From a virus: 24,918 nucleotides of DNA. Made by a program: the position numbers and the translations under genes. Shown here in pieces: positions 7,404 through 14,220 of the stretch. Every line of letters begins with the position of its first letter. Position 1 is the first letter of the stretch. The stretch covers positions 1-24,918 of the IMG/VR virus record IMGVR_UViG_3300047094_000277; one strand, 5' to 3'. Below the pieces are notes generated by a model. That model saw only the letters and a list, made by a program, of their open reading frames with translations, did no database searches and was not told the DNA's origin.

Positions 7404-8792
7404 TTAGACCTTGGAGATGGTGCAGATGATAGACGCCGTGGACGGGTGGACCGCCGTGGCCGGAAGGAACTCCAGCGTCACATCCAGATCGGTCACGGCC
7501 CAGTACAACTGGAGGTAGTCGTTCGCGGCCAGTTCGACGTAGTAATTCCACCCCGGCAACACATGGCCGTTGACCCCGCCGTGCCGCTCAGGGACGGACA
7601 CGATCCCGTTTGATCCCGTGACGTAGGTACCGTTCTTGGCAATCCAGATGTTTACGTCATGGATCTGCGTGTCGGAATTGGTGAACTGCCCCGACCACTG
7701 GAAGTTGTACACCCCCGCCTGACTGACCGTGATCTTGGAGTTGGTCAGCCCCGTATCAATCGACACGCCATAGGCCGTATCAATCGTGTCGAACGTGATG
7801 AGCTTGGCCGTGTTGATTGAGGTGTGCGTCTGGTCCGTAAAGTCTTGGAACGCGCCCCAGCGCCGTCCGCTCTGTCCCGTATCGCCAATGGTGATCCATG
7901 CGCCATTGACGTAGAAGTAGATCAGCCCCGTGTCCGTGCCGACGTACATCCCGCCGTTGGGCAGGACCGCAGGACGGAGCGCCAGCGTCCCAGACTGCAC
8001 ATGGATCAGCGAGTCGGAGTCGTGCGCGTCAATCGCTGCGGCCACCAGATTGTCGTTGGCGCGAACGATGTTGGAGTCCACCTTGCCCTGCGCGTTGACC
8101 GGCGAGGGGAACGGATCGACCCTGTTGCGCCCGATCTGCGACTGCGTATAGATGACATCGGCCACCTGCCCGTTCAGCGTGTAACTGCCCGTGGCAGCGA
8201 CTAGGAGCGGCCCCTTGCGGAGATCCGCTGTCTGCCCTGCCACGCTGAACGCGCCGTAGTCTGCCGCGACCCGTCGAGCGGGGATCAGCCCTGCCGCTTG
8301 CCCTGCGAGGCTGAAGTAGCCCGTGTCGGGAGAAAAGGCGTAGCCCTGCCCGAATGATGTCGCTTGGCCGTCCAGCGTGAACGTGCCGTGGTCTGCCGTG
8401 ACAAGACGGGTGATCGGGAAGCCCGCATCCTGCCCCGTCAGCGCAAACGTCCCGTGGTCCAAGGGGAGCGTGCGGCTGCTGGTCAGCGTGGCGTCTTGGC
8501 CCGACAGCGTGAAGGTGCCGTGGACAGGGCTAAAGGCATAGCCCAGCCCGAAGGCCGTGGACTGCCCATCCAGCGTGTACGTCCCGTGGTCCGCGATAAG
8601 GCGAGCGCCCTTATCAAAGACCACCGCCTCGCCAGAGAGCGTGTACGACCCGTGCGCGGCAGAGAGGCTGAACGAGGCGCTGGTGGCCGCATCCTGCCCA
8701 CTCAGCGTAAAAGTGCCCACGGCGGCGATGAGGACTCGCGCCACCCCCGTCGAGGAGAGTGGCGCACCGCTGATCGGGAACCCAGAAAGCAT
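7404..8792 (-). CDS. Tail fibre protein 3 with nine 22-residue repeats and a C1q-like head
   Basis: 462 residues. A short leader (MLSGFPISGAPLSSTG) precedes nine repeats of exactly 22 residues (about 24-218) with core G-(T/S)-(F/Y)-(T/S)-L-x-G-Q; the leading Gly falls at 26, 48, 70, 92, 114, 136, 158, 180 and 202. Residues about 226-302 are the same module as at the N-terminus of fibre 1 (VRANDNLVAAAIDAHDSD, IHVQS, GTDTGLIYFYVNGAWITI). The last ~150 residues (FDTIDTAYGVSIDTG, VSQAGVYNFQWSGQF, NIWIAKNGTYV, LAANDYLQLYW) look like a C1q/TNF-type jelly roll common in phage fibre tips. It is probably a trimeric receptor-binding or adaptor protein. It starts 4 bases after the glycosyltransferase stop. 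Confidence 0.85.
   Translation of the reverse strand: MLSGFPISGAPLSSTGVARVLIAAVGTFTLSGQDAATSASFSLSAAHGSYTLSGEAVVFDKGARLIADHGTYTLDGQSTAFGLGYAFSPVHGTFTLSGQDATLTSSRTLPLDHGTFALTGQDAGFPITRLVTADHGTFTLDGQATSFGQGYAFSPDTGYFSLAGQAAGLIPARRVAADYGAFSVAGQTADLRKGPLLVAATGSYTLNGQVADVIYTQSQIGRNRVDPFPSPVNAQGKVDSNIVRANDNLVAAAIDAHDSDSLIHVQSGTLALRPAVLPNGGMYVGTDTGLIYFYVNGAWITIGDTGQSGRRWGAFQDFTDQTHTSINTAKLITFDTIDTAYGVSIDTGLTNSKITVSQAGVYNFQWSGQFTNSDTQIHDVNIWIAKNGTYVTGSNGIVSVPERHGGVNGHVLPGWNYYVELAANDYLQLYWAVTDLDVTLEFLPATAVHPSTASIICTISKV
8139..8723 (-). repeat. Nine in-register 66-bp repeats (22 residues each)
   Basis: Nine coding repeats with no insertion or deletion between them. Units 3 and 6 are near-identical (LDGQ, then FGLGYAFSP versus FGQGYAFSP), showing a higher-order 198-bp duplication on top of the 66-bp unit. 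Confidence 0.85.
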
Positions 8793-8796
8793 CGCG

Positions 8797-9786
8797 TTAG
8801 CTCACGGCAGAGGTGGCAATTCGCTCGCGCAAATCTTCCGCGATCTGGGCAAACGGCGCATCCCAGTTCCCGTAAGTTGTTTGGCGATATAGCCTTACCG
8901 TATCATACCACGGGGTCGTTTCTCCGGGGAGTGCCCAGACATAGTACGGCAGCGCCGGAACGATCACCCATGTCTCTACGCCCAACGCCGCCGCGCAGTG
9001 CGCCACGGACGTATCGCTAGTAATCACAAGGTCCAACCCAGCGAGGATGCTGGCCGTAGCGGTCCAGTCTGTCATCTCGTCGCGCAAGTCCGTGAACGGC
9101 ACATCCAGCAGATCGTCGTCACGCTGGAGGCTGTAGAAGTTCGCGCCGGGAATCTTGGTTAGCGCCAGCATGAGGGACGGATTGAACTTCCGGTGTTGCT
9201 CATGCTCAAACTTCGGGTTGCCAGACCAGCGGACCCCGACGTTCAGGCCAGCCGGAAACACCCGAGGCGTAGCGCGAAGGTACGGGGCACCGCTCAAGTC
9301 AGAGTACTCCAGCTTCAAGACATACGGGGCGCTCATCGCAGGAACCCAGTAGTCGTGCGCTGGAAGCTCCTTGTCGGTGTCTGCCACCACTTCGCTTACG
9401 CCGTCGATGGTGCCAAGCAACCCGACCAACGAGGGGTGCGTGGTTAGCACCACCCGCCCGTACTTGGCAAGGTCCGTGGCAAACCGCGCGTTGATAATGT
9501 GGTCGCCCAATCCGCCTTCGCTTCGCAGCAAGATCGTCGGGTTCGGGCCACGGAAGATCGGGGCTGGCGTATTGAGCGGCGGGGAGCCAAAGACGTTTAT
9601 CATGCGCCCCGCGCTCATCATGTCCATGCCACGGCGCAGGTTCCCGTGCCGTAGTTCGTGCCACCCCAAGTTAAACGCCACGCGAGGATCGTCCTGCGGT
9701 TGATCGCGCAGGATGCGCTCCGACTGATCCGCTTTGCCTTCAACGGCAAGCGCCAGCGCGGCGTCCAATGGATGCACGTTAGACAT
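8797..9786 (-). CDS. GT9/heptosyltransferase-like glycosyltransferase with TPR-like N-terminus
   Basis: 329 residues. I start at the ATG at 9786 (MSNVHPLDAA), which overlaps the upstream stop by 8 bases; the 28 codons above it overlap the previous gene out of frame and look spurious. Residues 5-65 are helical and TPR-like (AALALAVEGKADQSERIL, FNLGWHELRHG). Residues 85-330 resemble the GT-B fold of ADP-heptose:LPS heptosyltransferases and TPR-linked relatives: RSEGGLGDHI (88-97), VGVRWSGNPKF (183-193), and SDTSVAHCAAALG (257-269), the nucleotide-sugar-side motif that usually reads D-T-x-x-A-H-x-x-x-A-L-G, followed by WALPGETTPWY (284-294). Such enzymes transfer a sugar from a nucleotide donor. 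Inside a tail-fibre block the acceptor could be a virion protein, or host LPS or a cell-wall glycan. Confidence 0.85.
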   Translation of the reverse strand: MSNVHPLDAALALAVEGKADQSERILRDQPQDDPRVAFNLGWHELRHGNLRRGMDMMSAGRMINVFGSPPLNTPAPIFRGPNPTILLRSEGGLGDHIINARFATDLAKYGRVVLTTHPSLVGLLGTIDGVSEVVADTDKELPAHDYWVPAMSAPYVLKLEYSDLSGAPYLRATPRVFPAGLNVGVRWSGNPKFEHEQHRKFNPSLMLALTKIPGANFYSLQRDDDLLDVPFTDLRDEMTDWTATASILAGLDLVITSDTSVAHCAAALGVETWVIVPALPYYVWALPGETTPWYDTVRLYRQTTYGNWDAPFAQIAEDLRERIATSAVS

Positions 9787-10279
9787 CAGCCGTGGGCGGG
9801 AATACGGGGGACGGCACGTTGCTCGTCGGCGGCTGTGGCGGGAACCCAACGTCCCAGATCGCATCGCCAAGTCCCTGCGTCACCGTGTCTGTCACTGTCT
9901 GGACATACGGAGGCCACTGATCCTTGATCGCCACGGGGAGCGCCGCGTAGGCGTCGGACGCCATAAAGGTTGACGCGAAGGCCAGACGGTTTGCCTTGTC
10001 TTGTTCAACCTCTGTCTGCTTCTCAGCGTTCTGCGCATCCAGTTCAGCTTGCGTCTTGTCGCGCTTGATGAAGGTGCAGATGACCTTTGTTGGGCGAACG
10101 TCAAACTGAATCGGCAAGAACACTTCGTACCGATCTACAAAGCTGTCTGGACGGATGCACTCAGCGTAGTACCACCCCAAGTCGAGCAGCTCAAAGTCCG
10201 ACTTGTTGGACAGGTCTGGAGCCAAGATGCCGGGGCCGCTGACGACGGCCCCTTGTTCAACGTAACAGTAAAGTCGCAT
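9779..10279 (-). CDS. Tail-associated accessory protein (fibre-assembly-like), unknown function
   Basis: 166 residues. The opening MRLYCYVEQGAVVSGPGIL with a later LLDLGWYYAECIRP and TKVICTFIKRDKTQAEL resembles small proteins that follow tail fibre genes and are often annotated as fibre assembly or tail-associated proteins: an N-terminal beta region that begins like a readout of Y-V-E-x-G, then a long helix (about 77-100), then a Pro-rich tail (PPQPPTSNVPSPVFPP). No enzyme motif is visible. It sits between the RCC1 protein and the glycosyltransferase, and its stop overlaps the latter's start by 8 bases. A chaperone or structural adaptor for the neighbouring adsorption proteins is plausible; the sequence does not decide. 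Confidence 0.72.
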   Translation of the reverse strand: MRLYCYVEQGAVVSGPGILAPDLSNKSDFELLDLGWYYAECIRPDSFVDRYEVFLPIQFDVRPTKVICTFIKRDKTQAELDAQNAEKQTEVEQDKANRLAFASTFMASDAYAALPVAIKDQWPPYVQTVTDTVTQGLGDAIWDVGFPPQPPTSNVPSPVFPPTADV

Positions 10280-10290
10280 AGGGTTCTCGG

Positions 10291-11673
10291 TTAGCTGCGA
10301 ATAGCGATAGATGAGTAAACGCCAGCGTCTAGCGCATCAATGGCTTGTAGCCAATTTGTTGCAGACCCAATTTGGACGGGGCTTGACCTAGTAGTTGTGT
10401 TGCCTTGGCCAAGCGAACCATTAGAATTGTCCCCCCATGCCCATAGTGTGCCGTTAGTTCTCACGGCAATGGTGTGGAATAACCCTGCTTTAACGTAAGC
10501 CCAACTTGTCAACGTGCCGACTTGCGTTGGTTCGCTTTTATTGTTCCCAGAATCACCAGTGCCGCATTGACCGTTGAAGTTGTACCCCCACATCCACAGC
10601 GACCCTGTTGTTTTAATGGCACCGCTATGAAAAGTGCCAGCAGCAACTTGCGCCCAGTTGGTGTCTGTTCCAACCTGCACAGGACTGCTAAACCCCCACG
10701 GCAAAGTGTTTGCCGAAGGATAAAACACCGCAACAGATGTTCCATTAACGCCAGTTTCACACTCACTGGTTGATGGGTTAAAAACGTATGGGTAATTTGA
10801 CAAGTCAACAAAACTTGAATACTTCGCCCCAAATGTTGCCGTGCCGCCGCCTCCGCACTCGGAGGTTATAGGAACAACTTCGTAGTAGGACGGGTTGTTC
10901 AGGTCCGTTTTTCCACACTGGTATTGTGTGTTTGTTCCCCACGCATACAGCGCACCGCCTGTGGTAAGCGCAAGGGCGTGTTCACTGCCAGTTGAGACTG
11001 CGGACCAGCTAATCGCTGAACTTACCTGTACAGGAGACGAGTAGCCGGTTTGGCTTACTGTCGGGTAGGGTGTGTTAAGAATCGTTCCATATGCATCAGT
11101 GTACGACTGCCCGCCAAACCCCCACGCCCACAGCGTATTCCCGCTGCGAATAGCATGGCCATTGTAAAGGGCAACCGAGCCATACCCAATCTTCGTCCAA
11201 CTTGTAAGAGTGCCGATTTGCACAGGACTAGACTTGTTTGTGATTGTCCCATCTCCCAACTGTCCATTCGTTCCCTCGCCCCATGCCCACAAAGTCCCAT
11301 CAGTTTTAAGGGCGAGCGTACTAAACCTTTTTGCCTGTGCCGTACTCCAGTTGGTTAGTGAGCCAATTTGCACAGGGCTAGACTTGCTCACTGTTGTCCC
11401 GTCACCAAGACGACCTCCTCCCCCAACCCCCCATGCCCACAGCGACCCACTAGACTGCACGGCAAGAACGTGTGATGATATGGACGCATCTGTCCATGCA
11501 GTTGATGATCCAACCTGCACAGGACTTGATCTGCTAGTGGTATTACCTTGCCCAAGCTGTCCGCTGCTGTTAATCCCCCACGCATACAGCCCAGAGCCAG
11601 CAGTTCCAGCGGCCCGAAGCACCCATCCAAACCCTCGCGCCGTCATCGCGCCTATCGTAGAAAGAACAGGCAT
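10291..11673 (-). CDS. RCC1-repeat seven-bladed beta-propeller protein
   Basis: 460 residues. After a short hydrophobic lead (1-25) come seven RCC1-type repeats, each with a LWAWG core (WG at 32, 81, 131, 184, 245, 362, 412), G-Q/R-L-G, SSPVQ(I/V)G and a closing strand with H/S-x-(L/I)-A. Seven is the full count for an RCC1 propeller. Blade 5 carries about 65 extra residues (252-326) with Cys at 253, 273 and 305. RCC1 propellers are protein- or ligand-binding discs; in phages they occur in tail regions and are presumed adsorption proteins, and no catalytic residues are evident. The start ATG is fixed by TAAGAGGATATT-ATG, fused to the upstream stop. By eye the gene looks less GC-rich than its neighbours, which hints at separate acquisition. 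Confidence 0.88.
   Translation of the reverse strand: MPVLSTIGAMTARGFGWVLRAAGTAGSGLYAWGINSSGQLGQGNTTSRSSPVQVGSSTAWTDASISSHVLAVQSSGSLWAWGVGGGGRLGDGTTVSKSSPVQIGSLTNWSTAQAKRFSTLALKTDGTLWAWGEGTNGQLGDGTITNKSSPVQIGTLTSWTKIGYGSVALYNGHAIRSGNTLWAWGFGGQSYTDAYGTILNTPYPTVSQTGYSSPVQVSSAISWSAVSTGSEHALALTTGGALYAWGTNTQYQCGKTDLNNPSYYEVVPITSECGGGGTATFGAKYSSFVDLSNYPYVFNPSTSECETGVNGTSVAVFYPSANTLPWGFSSPVQVGTDTNWAQVAAGTFHSGAIKTTGSLWMWGYNFNGQCGTGDSGNNKSEPTQVGTLTSWAYVKAGLFHTIAVRTNGTLWAWGDNSNGSLGQGNTTTRSSPVQIGSATNWLQAIDALDAGVYSSIAIRS
10696..10920 (-). other. Insertion within RCC1 blade 5
   Basis: Codes for about 75 residues between the WG core and the SSPVQ motif of blade 5, where other blades have about 15-20. It is rich in Tyr, Asn, Ser and Gly (SECGGGGTATFGAKYSS, STSECETGVN) and holds three cysteines. 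It would project from the propeller rim. Confidence 0.6.
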
Positions 11674-11682
11674 AATATCCTC

Positions 11683-12624
11683 TTACGCGAATCGCGTCTG
11701 ACTGCCGAGCAACGTGTACGTCGGCGTGGATGCGGTCTTGATGACCGTGTAGGTGTAGATGTCGATGCTGCTGGCGTTCCCAGCGGTCGGGGCCGTCCCA
11801 CCCTGCCACCGCACCGTTGCCGATGTTCCGTCGATCTGATGCGCCGTGGGGTAATACGGCGTTGTCCCCTGCTGCACCAAGAACGTAATGGTCAGAGACT
11901 CGCCAACGGCCATCGTTGAGTTCAGTGTTGTCCCACTGTTCCCTCGGATGTTCAACGTCCAATTGGCGCTGGCATTGCTGGTGTAGAACAAGACCGCTTG
12001 CGTAAGGACATCGTAGGCAATAGTCCCCGTGGCTGCGGTGGCGCTTACGGTGGCCTTTTCTAGTGCTTGCTGAATCTTGGTTGTCCCGGCCACCGTCAAC
12101 GCTGTCAACGATCCCACGCTGGTCAGCGAAGACGCGGTGACGCCACTGGCGAGCGTTGCGCCCGTCAACGTGCCAGCCGCCGCTGTTACCGTCCCGCTTG
12201 CGCCAAGGGCAATCGCGGTGCCGTTGACCGTCACGCTGCTATTGGTCAGCGACGAATTGCCAATGTTGGACAGCGTGTTGTCAGCGCCACTGATCGTCTT
12301 GTTCGTCAGCGTGACGCTATCCACCGTCGTGACGGCACGATCCGCGACATAGGAACAGAAGACATCCTTGGTCCCCGCCGAGAACACCACCTTGGCGTCC
12401 GCGTTGGAGGACTGCAACACGGTGTCCCGTGAGAGCGTCCCTGCGCCGGTCGTGCCGATCCCGACCTCCCACTCACTCCCGCCAGCAATGACGTAGTAGA
12501 CCGATACGCCATTGCCGAACGCGGTCGTGAACGACTGGAAGCCTGTGGCTGCGCCGTCAAGCGTCAGCGTTCCGTTGCCAGTGGTTGTCGTACTTTCTTT
12601 GACGCGATCTGCTAATGCTGGCAT
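11683..12624 (-). CDS. Tail fibre protein 2
   Basis: 313 residues. The N-terminal ~97 residues (MPALADRVKESTTTTGNG, then SFTTAFGNGVSVYYVI and GAGTLSRDTVL, ending VFCSYVADRAV) are a widespread phage domain found at the head of tail-associated proteins, probably the attachment part. Residues about 100-185 are a Thr/Ser/Gly-rich low-complexity shaft (TLTNKTISGADNTLSNIG). The C-terminal ~120 residues (YDVLTQAVLFYTSNASANW, SLTITFLVQQGTTPYYP, RWQGGTAPTAGNASSIDIY) match a recurrent fibre-tip domain ending near the C-terminus. The 25-base gap upstream has AGGA 8 bases before the ATG. It is distinct from fibres 1 and 3 at its N-terminus, so it probably attaches at another point or through another protein. 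The ligand is unknown. Confidence 0.82.
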   Translation of the reverse strand: MPALADRVKESTTTTGNGTLTLDGAATGFQSFTTAFGNGVSVYYVIAGGSEWEVGIGTTGAGTLSRDTVLQSSNADAKVVFSAGTKDVFCSYVADRAVTTVDSVTLTNKTISGADNTLSNIGNSSLTNSSVTVNGTAIALGASGTVTAAAGTLTGATLASGVTASSLTSVGSLTALTVAGTTKIQQALEKATVSATAATGTIAYDVLTQAVLFYTSNASANWTLNIRGNSGTTLNSTMAVGESLTITFLVQQGTTPYYPTAHQIDGTSATVRWQGGTAPTAGNASSIDIYTYTVIKTASTPTYTLLGSQTRFA

Positions 12625-13089: not shown

Positions 13090-14220
13090 TTAGTTGACGC
13101 GAATAGCAACGATAGTGCAAGCCCCACCAGAAACGCTTGCCGTATTCCCCGCTGCAAGCTTATACGCAGACACCGTAACGGTTCCAGCACCAGAAAATGT
13201 GACAACATCATTTACAGCAAATCCAAGCGACCATGACGTTGGCGTTGTTGACGATGCGCCAGTTACCCCAAGCATCTGTGCGGAACTCCAAATGCTTGCC
13301 CCGCTAATCGTTGCCGTGGCTGTCATTTGTACACGCTCAAGCGCAACAGCCCCAGCACTGCACGTTGGGTTGGCGGCGCTCATGAGCAAGTAGCTGCCAG
13401 CGGACGAAATGTTAAGGGTGGCAACAGTCGTTGCTGTCGTCCCAATGGTGACGGAACTCACGTTTGACGCAGAGACCACTGTTGGGTTGACGTTTAGCCC
13501 GGACACCGTACCAGTAAAGGTCGTGTTATTGAGCGTAGCCCCAGCAATCGTCCCGCCGTTGCGCGTGGAGCCGGTCGCCGTAATGGTGCCAGTTTCCGTG
13601 TGCGTGGGGATGGTCGTGCCGCTAGGAACGGTCAACGTAGTGGGCGAAACCGTGCCGCCGCTCAATGTCGCGGAAGTAAAGTTCGCCGTGCCTGTTACGG
13701 TTGGGGACGGCAGTGAAGTGCCTGACGGTGCGTTTAGCGTAGTCGGAGATACCGTGCCGCCACTAATTGTACCGCTGTTCGTAGTCGTTCCTGACAGTGT
13801 GGCGTTGCTCAGGGTGCCAGAGCCAATCACCGTGCCAGCCGGAAGGTTTAGCGTGGACGGAGAAAGCGTCCCGCCCGTGATTTCGCCGTTGTTGGTCGTC
13901 GTCCCAACTAGCGTTGCGTTGATAAACGATGGGTTCCCCGTGGTCGGGACATAGCTGATCTCCTCCCACGCCGCCCCAGTATCAAACCAGAGCTTGACCG
14001 ATCCGGCATCGGTTGTGAGCCACTTACGACCAGCCGTTCCGGCGATGGGACGAGCAGCTAAGGCAGACGACTGGAGGTGGATGCCACCATCACTGTCGTG
14101 ATCCACATACGCGCCGCGAACAGAGTTGTCGTTCGCTTTCACTACAGTCGCATCCAGCGGATCGCCGTTTGACGGATTGGTAAACGCCGCGACCCCATGT
14201 TGCCCCACGGTTTGTGCCAT
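13090..14220 (-). CDS. Tail fibre protein 1
   Basis: 376 residues. Residues 13-89 form a module with VKANDNSVRGAYVDHDSDGG, IHLQSS, LAARP and TTDAGSVKLWFDTGAAWEEI. A related module occurs mid-protein in the fibre encoded at 7404..8792, so it may be a virion-attachment or trimerisation domain. Residues about 100-235 are a Gly/Thr/Ser shaft with imperfect repeats of 34-38 residues keyed by GGTxSPxTL (116, 154, 188). The C-terminal 110 residues are beta-rich (LNISSAGSYLLMSAAN, LGFAVNDVVTFSGAGTVTVS), ending in ACTIVAIRVN, and look like a compact jelly-roll head. It directly follows the hub gene (TGATG overlap). The receptor is unknown. Confidence 0.83.
   Translation of the reverse strand: MAQTVGQHGVAAFTNPSNGDPLDATVVKANDNSVRGAYVDHDSDGGIHLQSSALAARPIAGTAGRKWLTTDAGSVKLWFDTGAAWEEISYVPTTGNPSFINATLVGTTTNNGEITGGTLSPSTLNLPAGTVIGSGTLSNATLSGTTTNSGTISGGTVSPTTLNAPSGTSLPSPTVTGTANFTSATLSGGTVSPTTLTVPSGTTIPTHTETGTITATGSTRNGGTIAGATLNNTTFTGTVSGLNVNPTVVSASNVSSVTIGTTATTVATLNISSAGSYLLMSAANPTCSAGAVALERVQMTATATISGASIWSSAQMLGVTGASSTTPTSWSLGFAVNDVVTFSGAGTVTVSAYKLAAGNTASVSGGACTIVAIRVN
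13516..13923 (-). repeat. Degenerate shaft repeats in tail fibre 1
   Basis: About three imperfect units of 34-38 residues, each with a GGT(L/V)SP(S/T)TL block followed by P(A/S)GT and TGT or SGT strands. The repeats are clearer in protein than in DNA, implying an old duplication. Confidence 0.6.

What the first reader, a model, noticed from the sequence alone, without database searches (positions are those of the whole stretch)
10291..11673. Complete seven-bladed RCC1 propeller in the adsorption block
The sequence shows seven LWAWG-type blades, the full number for a closed propeller. RCC1 domains are best known as eukaryotic chromatin or GTPase-exchange factors and as bacterial surface or effector proteins. 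A phage version between a tail fibre and a glycosyltransferase is probably a host-binding disc. About 65 extra residues with three cysteines project from blade 5, where a receptor loop might sit. By eye the gene also looks less GC-rich than its neighbours.
Basis: partly seen in the sequence, partly recalled or inferred. Interest (0 to 1): 0.62.

Follow-up and report, generated by a model that had tools for sequence, protein, structure and literature searches.

The report
Phage fibre-tip adhesin with RCC1 propeller
This phage gene encodes a seven-bladed propeller that probably sits on the tip of a tail fibre and grips the host, plugged in by a short tag that many environmental phages put on very different heads, so proteins published as phage 'DNA condensation' proteins may really be host-binding parts.

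Summary
The gene is on the minus strand (10291-11673, 460 aa): seven RCC1 repeats, predicted as 28 strands in seven blades, with a ~65-residue insert holding three cysteines in blade 5, and codon usage unlike its neighbours.

The main result lies outside the propeller. Residues 1-17 (MPVLSTIGAMTARGFGW) match a short N-terminal tag found on 65 distinct ORFs in environmental phages. The tag precedes unrelated domains: glycine-rich, RCC1, other beta-propellers, FN3. The gene directly upstream nearly always ends in one conserved ~125-aa 'cap' domain (phrog_5906), as it does here. In loci chosen by the cap alone, 66 of 73 following genes carry the tag or a clear variant, against 2 of 489 other genes.

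The best explanation is a fibre-plus-tip-adhesin pair like T2/S16 gp37-gp38, with interchangeable heads, RCC1 being a minority head. Published mass spectrometry finds RCC1 proteins in virions of other phages, where they were guessed to condense DNA. Two T7-like phages fuse RCC1 to a T7 tail-fibre N-terminus.

Docking and receptor binding are inferred, not shown. A tag-cap covariation test was not significant. Phage RCC1 genes are common in viromes; the tag-cap arrangement is the new part.

The parts
11623..11673 (-). N-terminal tag, residues 1-17 (MPVLSTIGAMTARGFGW): proposed docking peptide
   Evidence: Same peptide at the N-terminus of 65 distinct ORFs with unrelated C-terminal domains; conservation falls off after residue ~17; third codon positions vary freely, so the protein is what is conserved
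10297..11592 (-). Seven-bladed RCC1 propeller, residues 28-459
   Evidence: Pfam, AlphaFold2, Foldseek to UVR8, HERC2, RPGR and RCC1
11044..11118 (-). Blade-4 A-B loop, residues 186-210, 25 aa against a median of 14
10696..10932 (-). Blade-5 A-B loop, residues 248-326, 79 aa against a median of 14, with C253, C273 and C305
11674..11682 (-). 9-nt gap between fibre stop and RCC1 start, with a ribosome-binding-site-like GAGGA
   Evidence: sequence; the same tight spacing is typical of cap-tag pairs
11683..12624 (-). Partner fibre gene, 313 aa
   Evidence: phrog_5906 (2.1e-27) and phrog_6002 virion structural protein (3.8e-19)
11686..12066 (-). C-terminal 'cap' domain of the fibre (~127 aa), proposed dock for the tag
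   Evidence: conserved at the C-terminus of upstream fibres of very different length; no Pfam family
9779..10279 (-). 166-aa gene after the RCC1 gene, candidate fibre/adhesin chaperone (inferred)
   Evidence: 69% identical to the gene after an RCC1 gene in L002; a related 149-aa gene follows a second RCC1 gene there; no PHROG and no solved relative
8797..9786 (-). GT9-like (weak) glycosyltransferase candidate, part of the conserved cassette
   Evidence: Pfam GT9 E 0.0023, 17.7 bits, below the 22-bit cut-off; 75% identical to the syntenic gene of L002; no solved relative

Best explanation
The protein is a tail-fibre tip adhesin. The upstream gene makes a fibre whose C-terminus is a conserved cap. 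The RCC1 protein docks on that cap through its first ~17 residues, and the propeller forms the outer disc, with the enlarged loops of blades 4 and 5 on one face as the likeliest receptor contacts. The tag-cap joint is general: many phages use it to carry other heads (glycine-rich, LamG, other beta-propellers, FN3), so heads can be exchanged by swapping everything after the tag. Shown: the propeller (predicted fold), the shared tag, the tag-cap gene pairing, the conserved cassette. Inferred: physical docking, position on the virion, receptor binding, the role of the loops.
For: Tag on 65 distinct ORFs; of 61 scanned, 34 glycine-rich, 4-5 RCC1, 3 SBBP propellers, 1 fn3. Residues outside the search pattern are also conserved at fixed distance (P 60/65, T 59/65). 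The cap lies at the C-terminus of the gene 0-22 nt upstream in most cases. Converse test from the cap alone: 52/73 following genes at tag score 5 or more against 1/489 other genes; at -10 or more, 66/73 against 2/489, both of which are visibly tagged genes. A cap-following gene in podophage MW202481 is annotated 'phage tail fiber adhesin gp38'. L002 has two caps and two tag versions, each on two heads; those paralogues match at 90% over the first 30 nt, then drop to background. Window and L002 share fibre end, RCC1, small gene and GT-like gene at 71, 49, 69 and 75% identity: the head diverges fastest. RCC1 fused to a T7 tail-fibre N-terminus in PollyC and Ppr_SeaP2. RCC1 after 'long tail fiber protein distal subunit' in S-SRM01. 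RCC1 proteins in virions of W70, phAPEC6 and GAP32.
Against: No direct evidence of docking or receptor binding. Tag and cap similarities do not covary significantly (r 0.08; 277 of 2000 permutations as high). Two of the three tagged RCC1 genes in L002 do not directly follow a cap gene. RCC1 is only 1 of 70 heads in the cap-selected set. Phage RCC1 genes elsewhere carry other N-termini, so the tag is not universal to phage RCC1. The virion mass spectrometry concerns distant phages and does not locate the protein on the particle.
Confidence: 0.8

Rival explanations
1. RCC1 virion proteins organise or condense the phage DNA inside the capsid, as proposed for phAPEC6 and suspected for W70.
For: Eukaryotic RCC1 binds nucleosomes; RCC1 proteins are found in virions and the authors suggest this role (PMC7247149, PMC11370258).
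Against: The proposal rests on the domain name. RCC1 is fused to a T7-type tail-fibre N-terminus in PollyC and Ppr_SeaP2, follows a distal tail-fibre gene in S-SRM01 and here shares its N-terminal tag with heads of the gp38 kind. The 121Q array gives RCC1 genes and one glycine-rich protein the same MLPF..RMVKYGN start.
Confidence: 0.07
2. The tagged RCC1 protein is a fibre-assembly chaperone or a structural connector, not the receptor binder; another protein, such as the 7404-8792 product, is the adhesin.
For: T4 gp38 sits after its fibre gene and is a chaperone that leaves the virion (PMC12892980). The window has further fibre-like genes.
Against: A chaperone should keep one fold, but the tagged partner changes fold from phage to phage. 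RCC1 proteins stay in virions of W70, phAPEC6 and GAP32. The small gene after it is a better chaperone candidate.
Confidence: 0.09
3. A moron-like gene, recently acquired, acting inside the cell or on the cell surface and unrelated to the virion.
For: Codon usage unlike the rest of the contig (z -13.4); RCC1 genes are common in bacteria.
Against: 9-nt coupling to a virion-type fibre gene, shared docking tag, conserved four-gene cassette; lower GC3 is a general trend of phage RCC1 genes, not special to this one.
Confidence: 0.04

Closest known systems
T2/S16/PP01 gp37-gp38 tail-fibre tip adhesins
   Same: Separate gene right after the fibre gene; N-terminus of the tip protein joins the fibre C-terminus; variable outer part binds the host (PMC12892980). 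One cap-following gene is annotated gp38, and many sister heads are glycine-rich.
   Different: The attachment part here is ~17 residues rather than a domain (113 residues were exchanged in the T2-PP01 chimera); many unrelated head folds; a cap with no Pfam family; an RCC1 propeller instead of polyglycine.
Anchor-branched receptor-binding proteins with short conserved N-terminal peptides (K1-5, SP6, G7C, Klebsiella KP34/KP32 groups)
   Same: A 7-11-residue or longer conserved N-terminal peptide is proposed to dock a second receptor-binding protein (PMC6872550).
   Different: There the dock is a T4gp10-like domain in another receptor-binding protein and heads are mostly depolymerases; here the dock is proposed to be a fibre's C-terminal cap and heads are propellers, lectin-like or glycine-rich domains.
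RCC1-containing phage proteins, phrog_4219 (W70 gp237-239, PollyC gp12); 'DNA condensation proteins' of GAP32, 121Q, phAPEC6
   Same: RCC1 propeller, often several copies, in virions of W70, phAPEC6 and GAP32; 121Q copies share an N-terminal motif.
   Different: Low sequence identity; a different tag (MLPFARMVKYGN in 121Q) or direct fusion to a tail fibre; published role is DNA condensation.
UVR8, HERC2 RLD, RPGR and RCC1 propellers
   Same: Same fold (TM-score 0.78-0.85 by target length).
   Different: Eukaryotic photoreceptor, ligase or exchange-factor functions; no sign of these here.

Membership tests
RCC1-like domain (PF25390/PF00415) | Seven RCC1 repeats above Pfam cut-offs | tested here: met
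   200.4 bits against 150 and 172 against 21.7; seven motifs
RCC1-like domain (PF25390/PF00415) | Closed seven-bladed propeller | tested here: met
   AlphaFold2, 28 strands, pTM 0.78; Foldseek to UVR8, E 7.7e-31. Predicted, not solved
RCC1-like domain (PF25390/PF00415) | Guanine-exchange activity on Ran or nucleosome binding, as in eukaryotic RCC1 | not testable with these tools
   No assay; not expected in a phage
gp38-type fibre tip adhesin (T2, S16, PP01) | Encoded directly after the distal fibre gene | tested here: met
   9-nt gap to the fibre gene
gp38-type fibre tip adhesin (T2, S16, PP01) | Conserved N-terminus paired with a conserved fibre C-terminus | tested here: met
   tag and cap; covariation not significant
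gp38-type fibre tip adhesin (T2, S16, PP01) | Polyglycine (PGII) receptor-binding domain | tested here: not met
   this head is RCC1; sister heads after the same cap often are glycine-rich
gp38-type fibre tip adhesin (T2, S16, PP01) | Located at the fibre tip and binds the receptor | not testable with these tools
   needs virions
Anchor-branched RBP with conserved docking peptide | Short conserved N-terminal peptide before a variable head | tested here: met
Anchor-branched RBP with conserved docking peptide | Dock is a T4gp10-like domain | tested here: inconclusive
   cap has no Pfam hit; no structure of the cap was predicted
Capsid DNA-condensation protein | Inside the capsid, binds DNA | not testable with these tools
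   published as a suggestion only

The most novel reading that the evidence does not exclude
A widespread plug-and-socket joint in environmental tailed phages: a ~17-residue N-terminal plug and a conserved fibre-end socket (phrog_5906) allow tail-tip adhesins of unrelated folds to be exchanged. Phage RCC1 proteins in general, including those published as DNA-condensation proteins of jumbo coliphages, are receptor-binding heads on their own short plugs.
Probability: 0.6. Interest if true: 0.75.

Novelty: new variant of a known kind. Interest (0 to 1): 0.6.

Why it matters
Host range of uncultured phages is hard to read because adhesins share no sequence. A fixed tag after a fixed cap finds the adhesin whatever its fold: among cap-following genes, 66 of 73 were recognised by the tag. 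It gives phrog_5906 (listed as unknown function) a proposed role, and it offers a testable alternative to the published view that phage RCC1 virion proteins condense DNA. It also shows one natural route by which folds with no common origin are put in the same host-recognition slot.

Tried and rejected
Single-sequence AlphaFold2 failed (pLDDT 32). tblastn of the 22-25-aa tag against named phages found nothing, probably because of the low-complexity filter and short length. Tag-cap covariation: r 0.08, not significant; both parts may be too conserved for the test. A simple regular expression undercounted tags after caps (25 of 80); the position-specific score replaced it. No megablast relative of the window in named phages; terminase and portal have only distant relatives, so the host is unknown. 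The glycine-rich head in 121Q (gene 243) is glycine-rich by inspection only: no Pfam hit and weak BLASTP similarity (E 0.009). GTPase exchange or photoreceptor roles were set aside: only the fold is shared.

Full report
What is there. The window is a complete IMG/VR contig of 24,918 bases carrying terminase, portal, capsid and fibre genes on the minus strand. The gene in question is 10291-11673, minus strand, 460 aa. It has seven RCC1 repeats well above Pfam cut-offs. With 58 homologues AlphaFold2 gives a seven-bladed propeller of 28 strands (mean pLDDT 78, pTM 0.78), with a low-confidence N-terminus and two low-confidence loops. Foldseek finds UVR8, HERC2, RPGR and RCC1 in the PDB and phage RCC1 proteins in BFVD, including the GAP32 'DNA condensation protein' and the tail-fibre proteins of PollyC and Littlefix. 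The blade-5 loop has about 65 extra residues with three cysteines; blade 4 has about 11 extra in the same loop; among 58 homologues only L002 shares both.

Composition. GC3 is 0.49 against 0.74 expected from the contig's own codon usage (z -13.4). Phage RCC1 genes in general have lower GC3 than their neighbours (60 of 75 loci; all 15 loci with neighbour GC3 above 0.6). This fits repeated import of heads but could also be a property of the family.

The tag. The first 17 residues, MPVLSTIGAMTARGFGW, recur. A degenerate DNA pattern for G-A-x-[ST]-A-R-G-F-G-[FW or similar] found 99 stretches in IMG/VR; most lie at the very start of an ORF. There are 65 distinct ORFs, window included. Residues outside the pattern (P at -6 in 60/65, T at -2 in 59/65) are conserved at fixed distance, and conservation ends after the tag. 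Third codon positions vary (entropy 1.59 against 0.59 and 0.49), so selection acts on the peptide. What follows the tag differs: glycine-rich domain (34 of 61), RCC1 (4-5), SBBP propeller (3), DUF7483 (2), fn3 (1) and others.

The cap. The gene directly upstream of tagged ORFs is a fibre of very variable length (115 to over 1000 aa) that nearly always ends in the same ~125-aa domain, usually 0-22 nt before the tagged gene. Here that gene is 11683-12624 with a 9-nt gap. The domain corresponds to phrog_5906, unknown function, and has no Pfam family. In the converse test, 80 loci were fetched by the cap alone. A score matrix from the tag set gave 52 of 73 distinct following genes at 5 or more against 1 of 489 other genes in the same loci; at -10 or more, 66 of 73 against 2 of 489, and those 2 are visibly tagged genes. 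The best 80 of 599 confirmed relatives were kept, so the set is biased to close cap relatives. Heads in this set were 27 of 70 glycine-rich, 9 DUF7483, 7 LamG, 4 SBBP, 2 fn3, 1 RCC1. Tag and cap do not covary significantly.

Modularity within one phage. L002 (from a 34-kb contig) has two fibre-cap genes and two tag versions. MSPFLTTLGGGSVRGFGR starts an FN3-like protein and an RCC1 protein; MAILSTFGA..ARGFGW starts two RCC1 proteins. In each pair the DNA is about 90% identical over the first 30 nt, then falls to background. Only one gene of each pair lies right after the cap gene. The window and L002 share the cassette: fibre end (71%), RCC1 (49%), 166-aa gene (69%) and GT-like gene (75%), with the head diverging fastest.

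Phage RCC1 at large. At least 588 IMG/VR stretches encode relatives, a capped count, many in tandem arrays with one of a few other short N-termini. One of these, YSGIWT...AAGTWP, also precedes RCC1, glycine-rich and FN3-like domains (the last two judged by eye). In named phages, PollyC and Ppr_SeaP2 have RCC1 in a protein that begins with a T7 tail-fibre N-terminal domain (Pfam 6e-5, just under its cut-off; PHROG tail families down to 1.7e-66), and in S-SRM01 an RCC1 gene overlaps the end of 'long tail fiber protein distal subunit'. In 121Q most genes of an RCC1 array, and one glycine-rich protein among them, start with MLPF..RMVKYGN.

Literature. RCC1 proteins were found by mass spectrometry in virions of W70 (PMC11370258), phAPEC6 (PMC7247149) and GAP32 (as reported in PMC5259590). 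The W70 and phAPEC6 authors suggest a role in DNA packing, from the domain name. The gp38 tip adhesins of T2-type phages attach by their N-terminus to gp37 (PMC12892980). Short N-terminal docking peptides are known for branched receptor-binding proteins (PMC6872550). A full-text search for the tag string found no paper, and a search for RCC1, phage, propeller and virion together found none; the library is partial, so this is not proof of novelty.

Mechanism and confidence. Best explanation (0.8): a fibre-tip adhesin docked by its tag on the cap of the upstream fibre, with the propeller as receptor-binding head. The genetic pairing and modularity are shown; docking, position and receptor contact are inferred.

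Noticed in passing
phrog_4219 members, e.g. L474:3156-5759 (PollyC gp12): PHROG files this family under DNA/RNA metabolism as 'regulator of chromosome condensation', but full-length members begin with a T7-type tail-fibre domain; the category looks wrong.
   Followed up: partly
L126, L139, L164, L166, L177: Tandem arrays of up to seven single-propeller RCC1 genes in one phage contig, each with a short conserved N-terminus of one of several kinds. Why so many heads per phage is unexplained.
   Followed up: partly
window 8797-9786; L002:9930-10913; L477:8434-14373; L003:2859-8140: Adhesin cassettes carry sugar- or sulphate-handling genes: GT9-like, TPR protein, 2OG-Fe(II) oxygenase, sulphotransferase. 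They might modify the heads.
   Followed up: no
L441:3878-4432 and the ORF before L069:3138: An HNH-endonuclease-looking ORF sits between the cap gene and the tagged gene in L441, and a similar one precedes the tagged gene in L069; possibly a mobile gene targeting the adhesin slot.
   Followed up: no
window 7404-8792 and 13090-14220: Two further fibre-like genes share a start-module sequence type (V.AND..V..A..DHDSD..IH.QSG.LA.RP); 7404-8792 has 'YTLSGQ' repeats and a C1q-like looking end, without Pfam or PHROG hits.
   Followed up: no
L388:11605-12810: An RCC1 protein carrying two different tags in a row (IKPGFNPL then YKGIWT...AANTWP).
   Followed up: no
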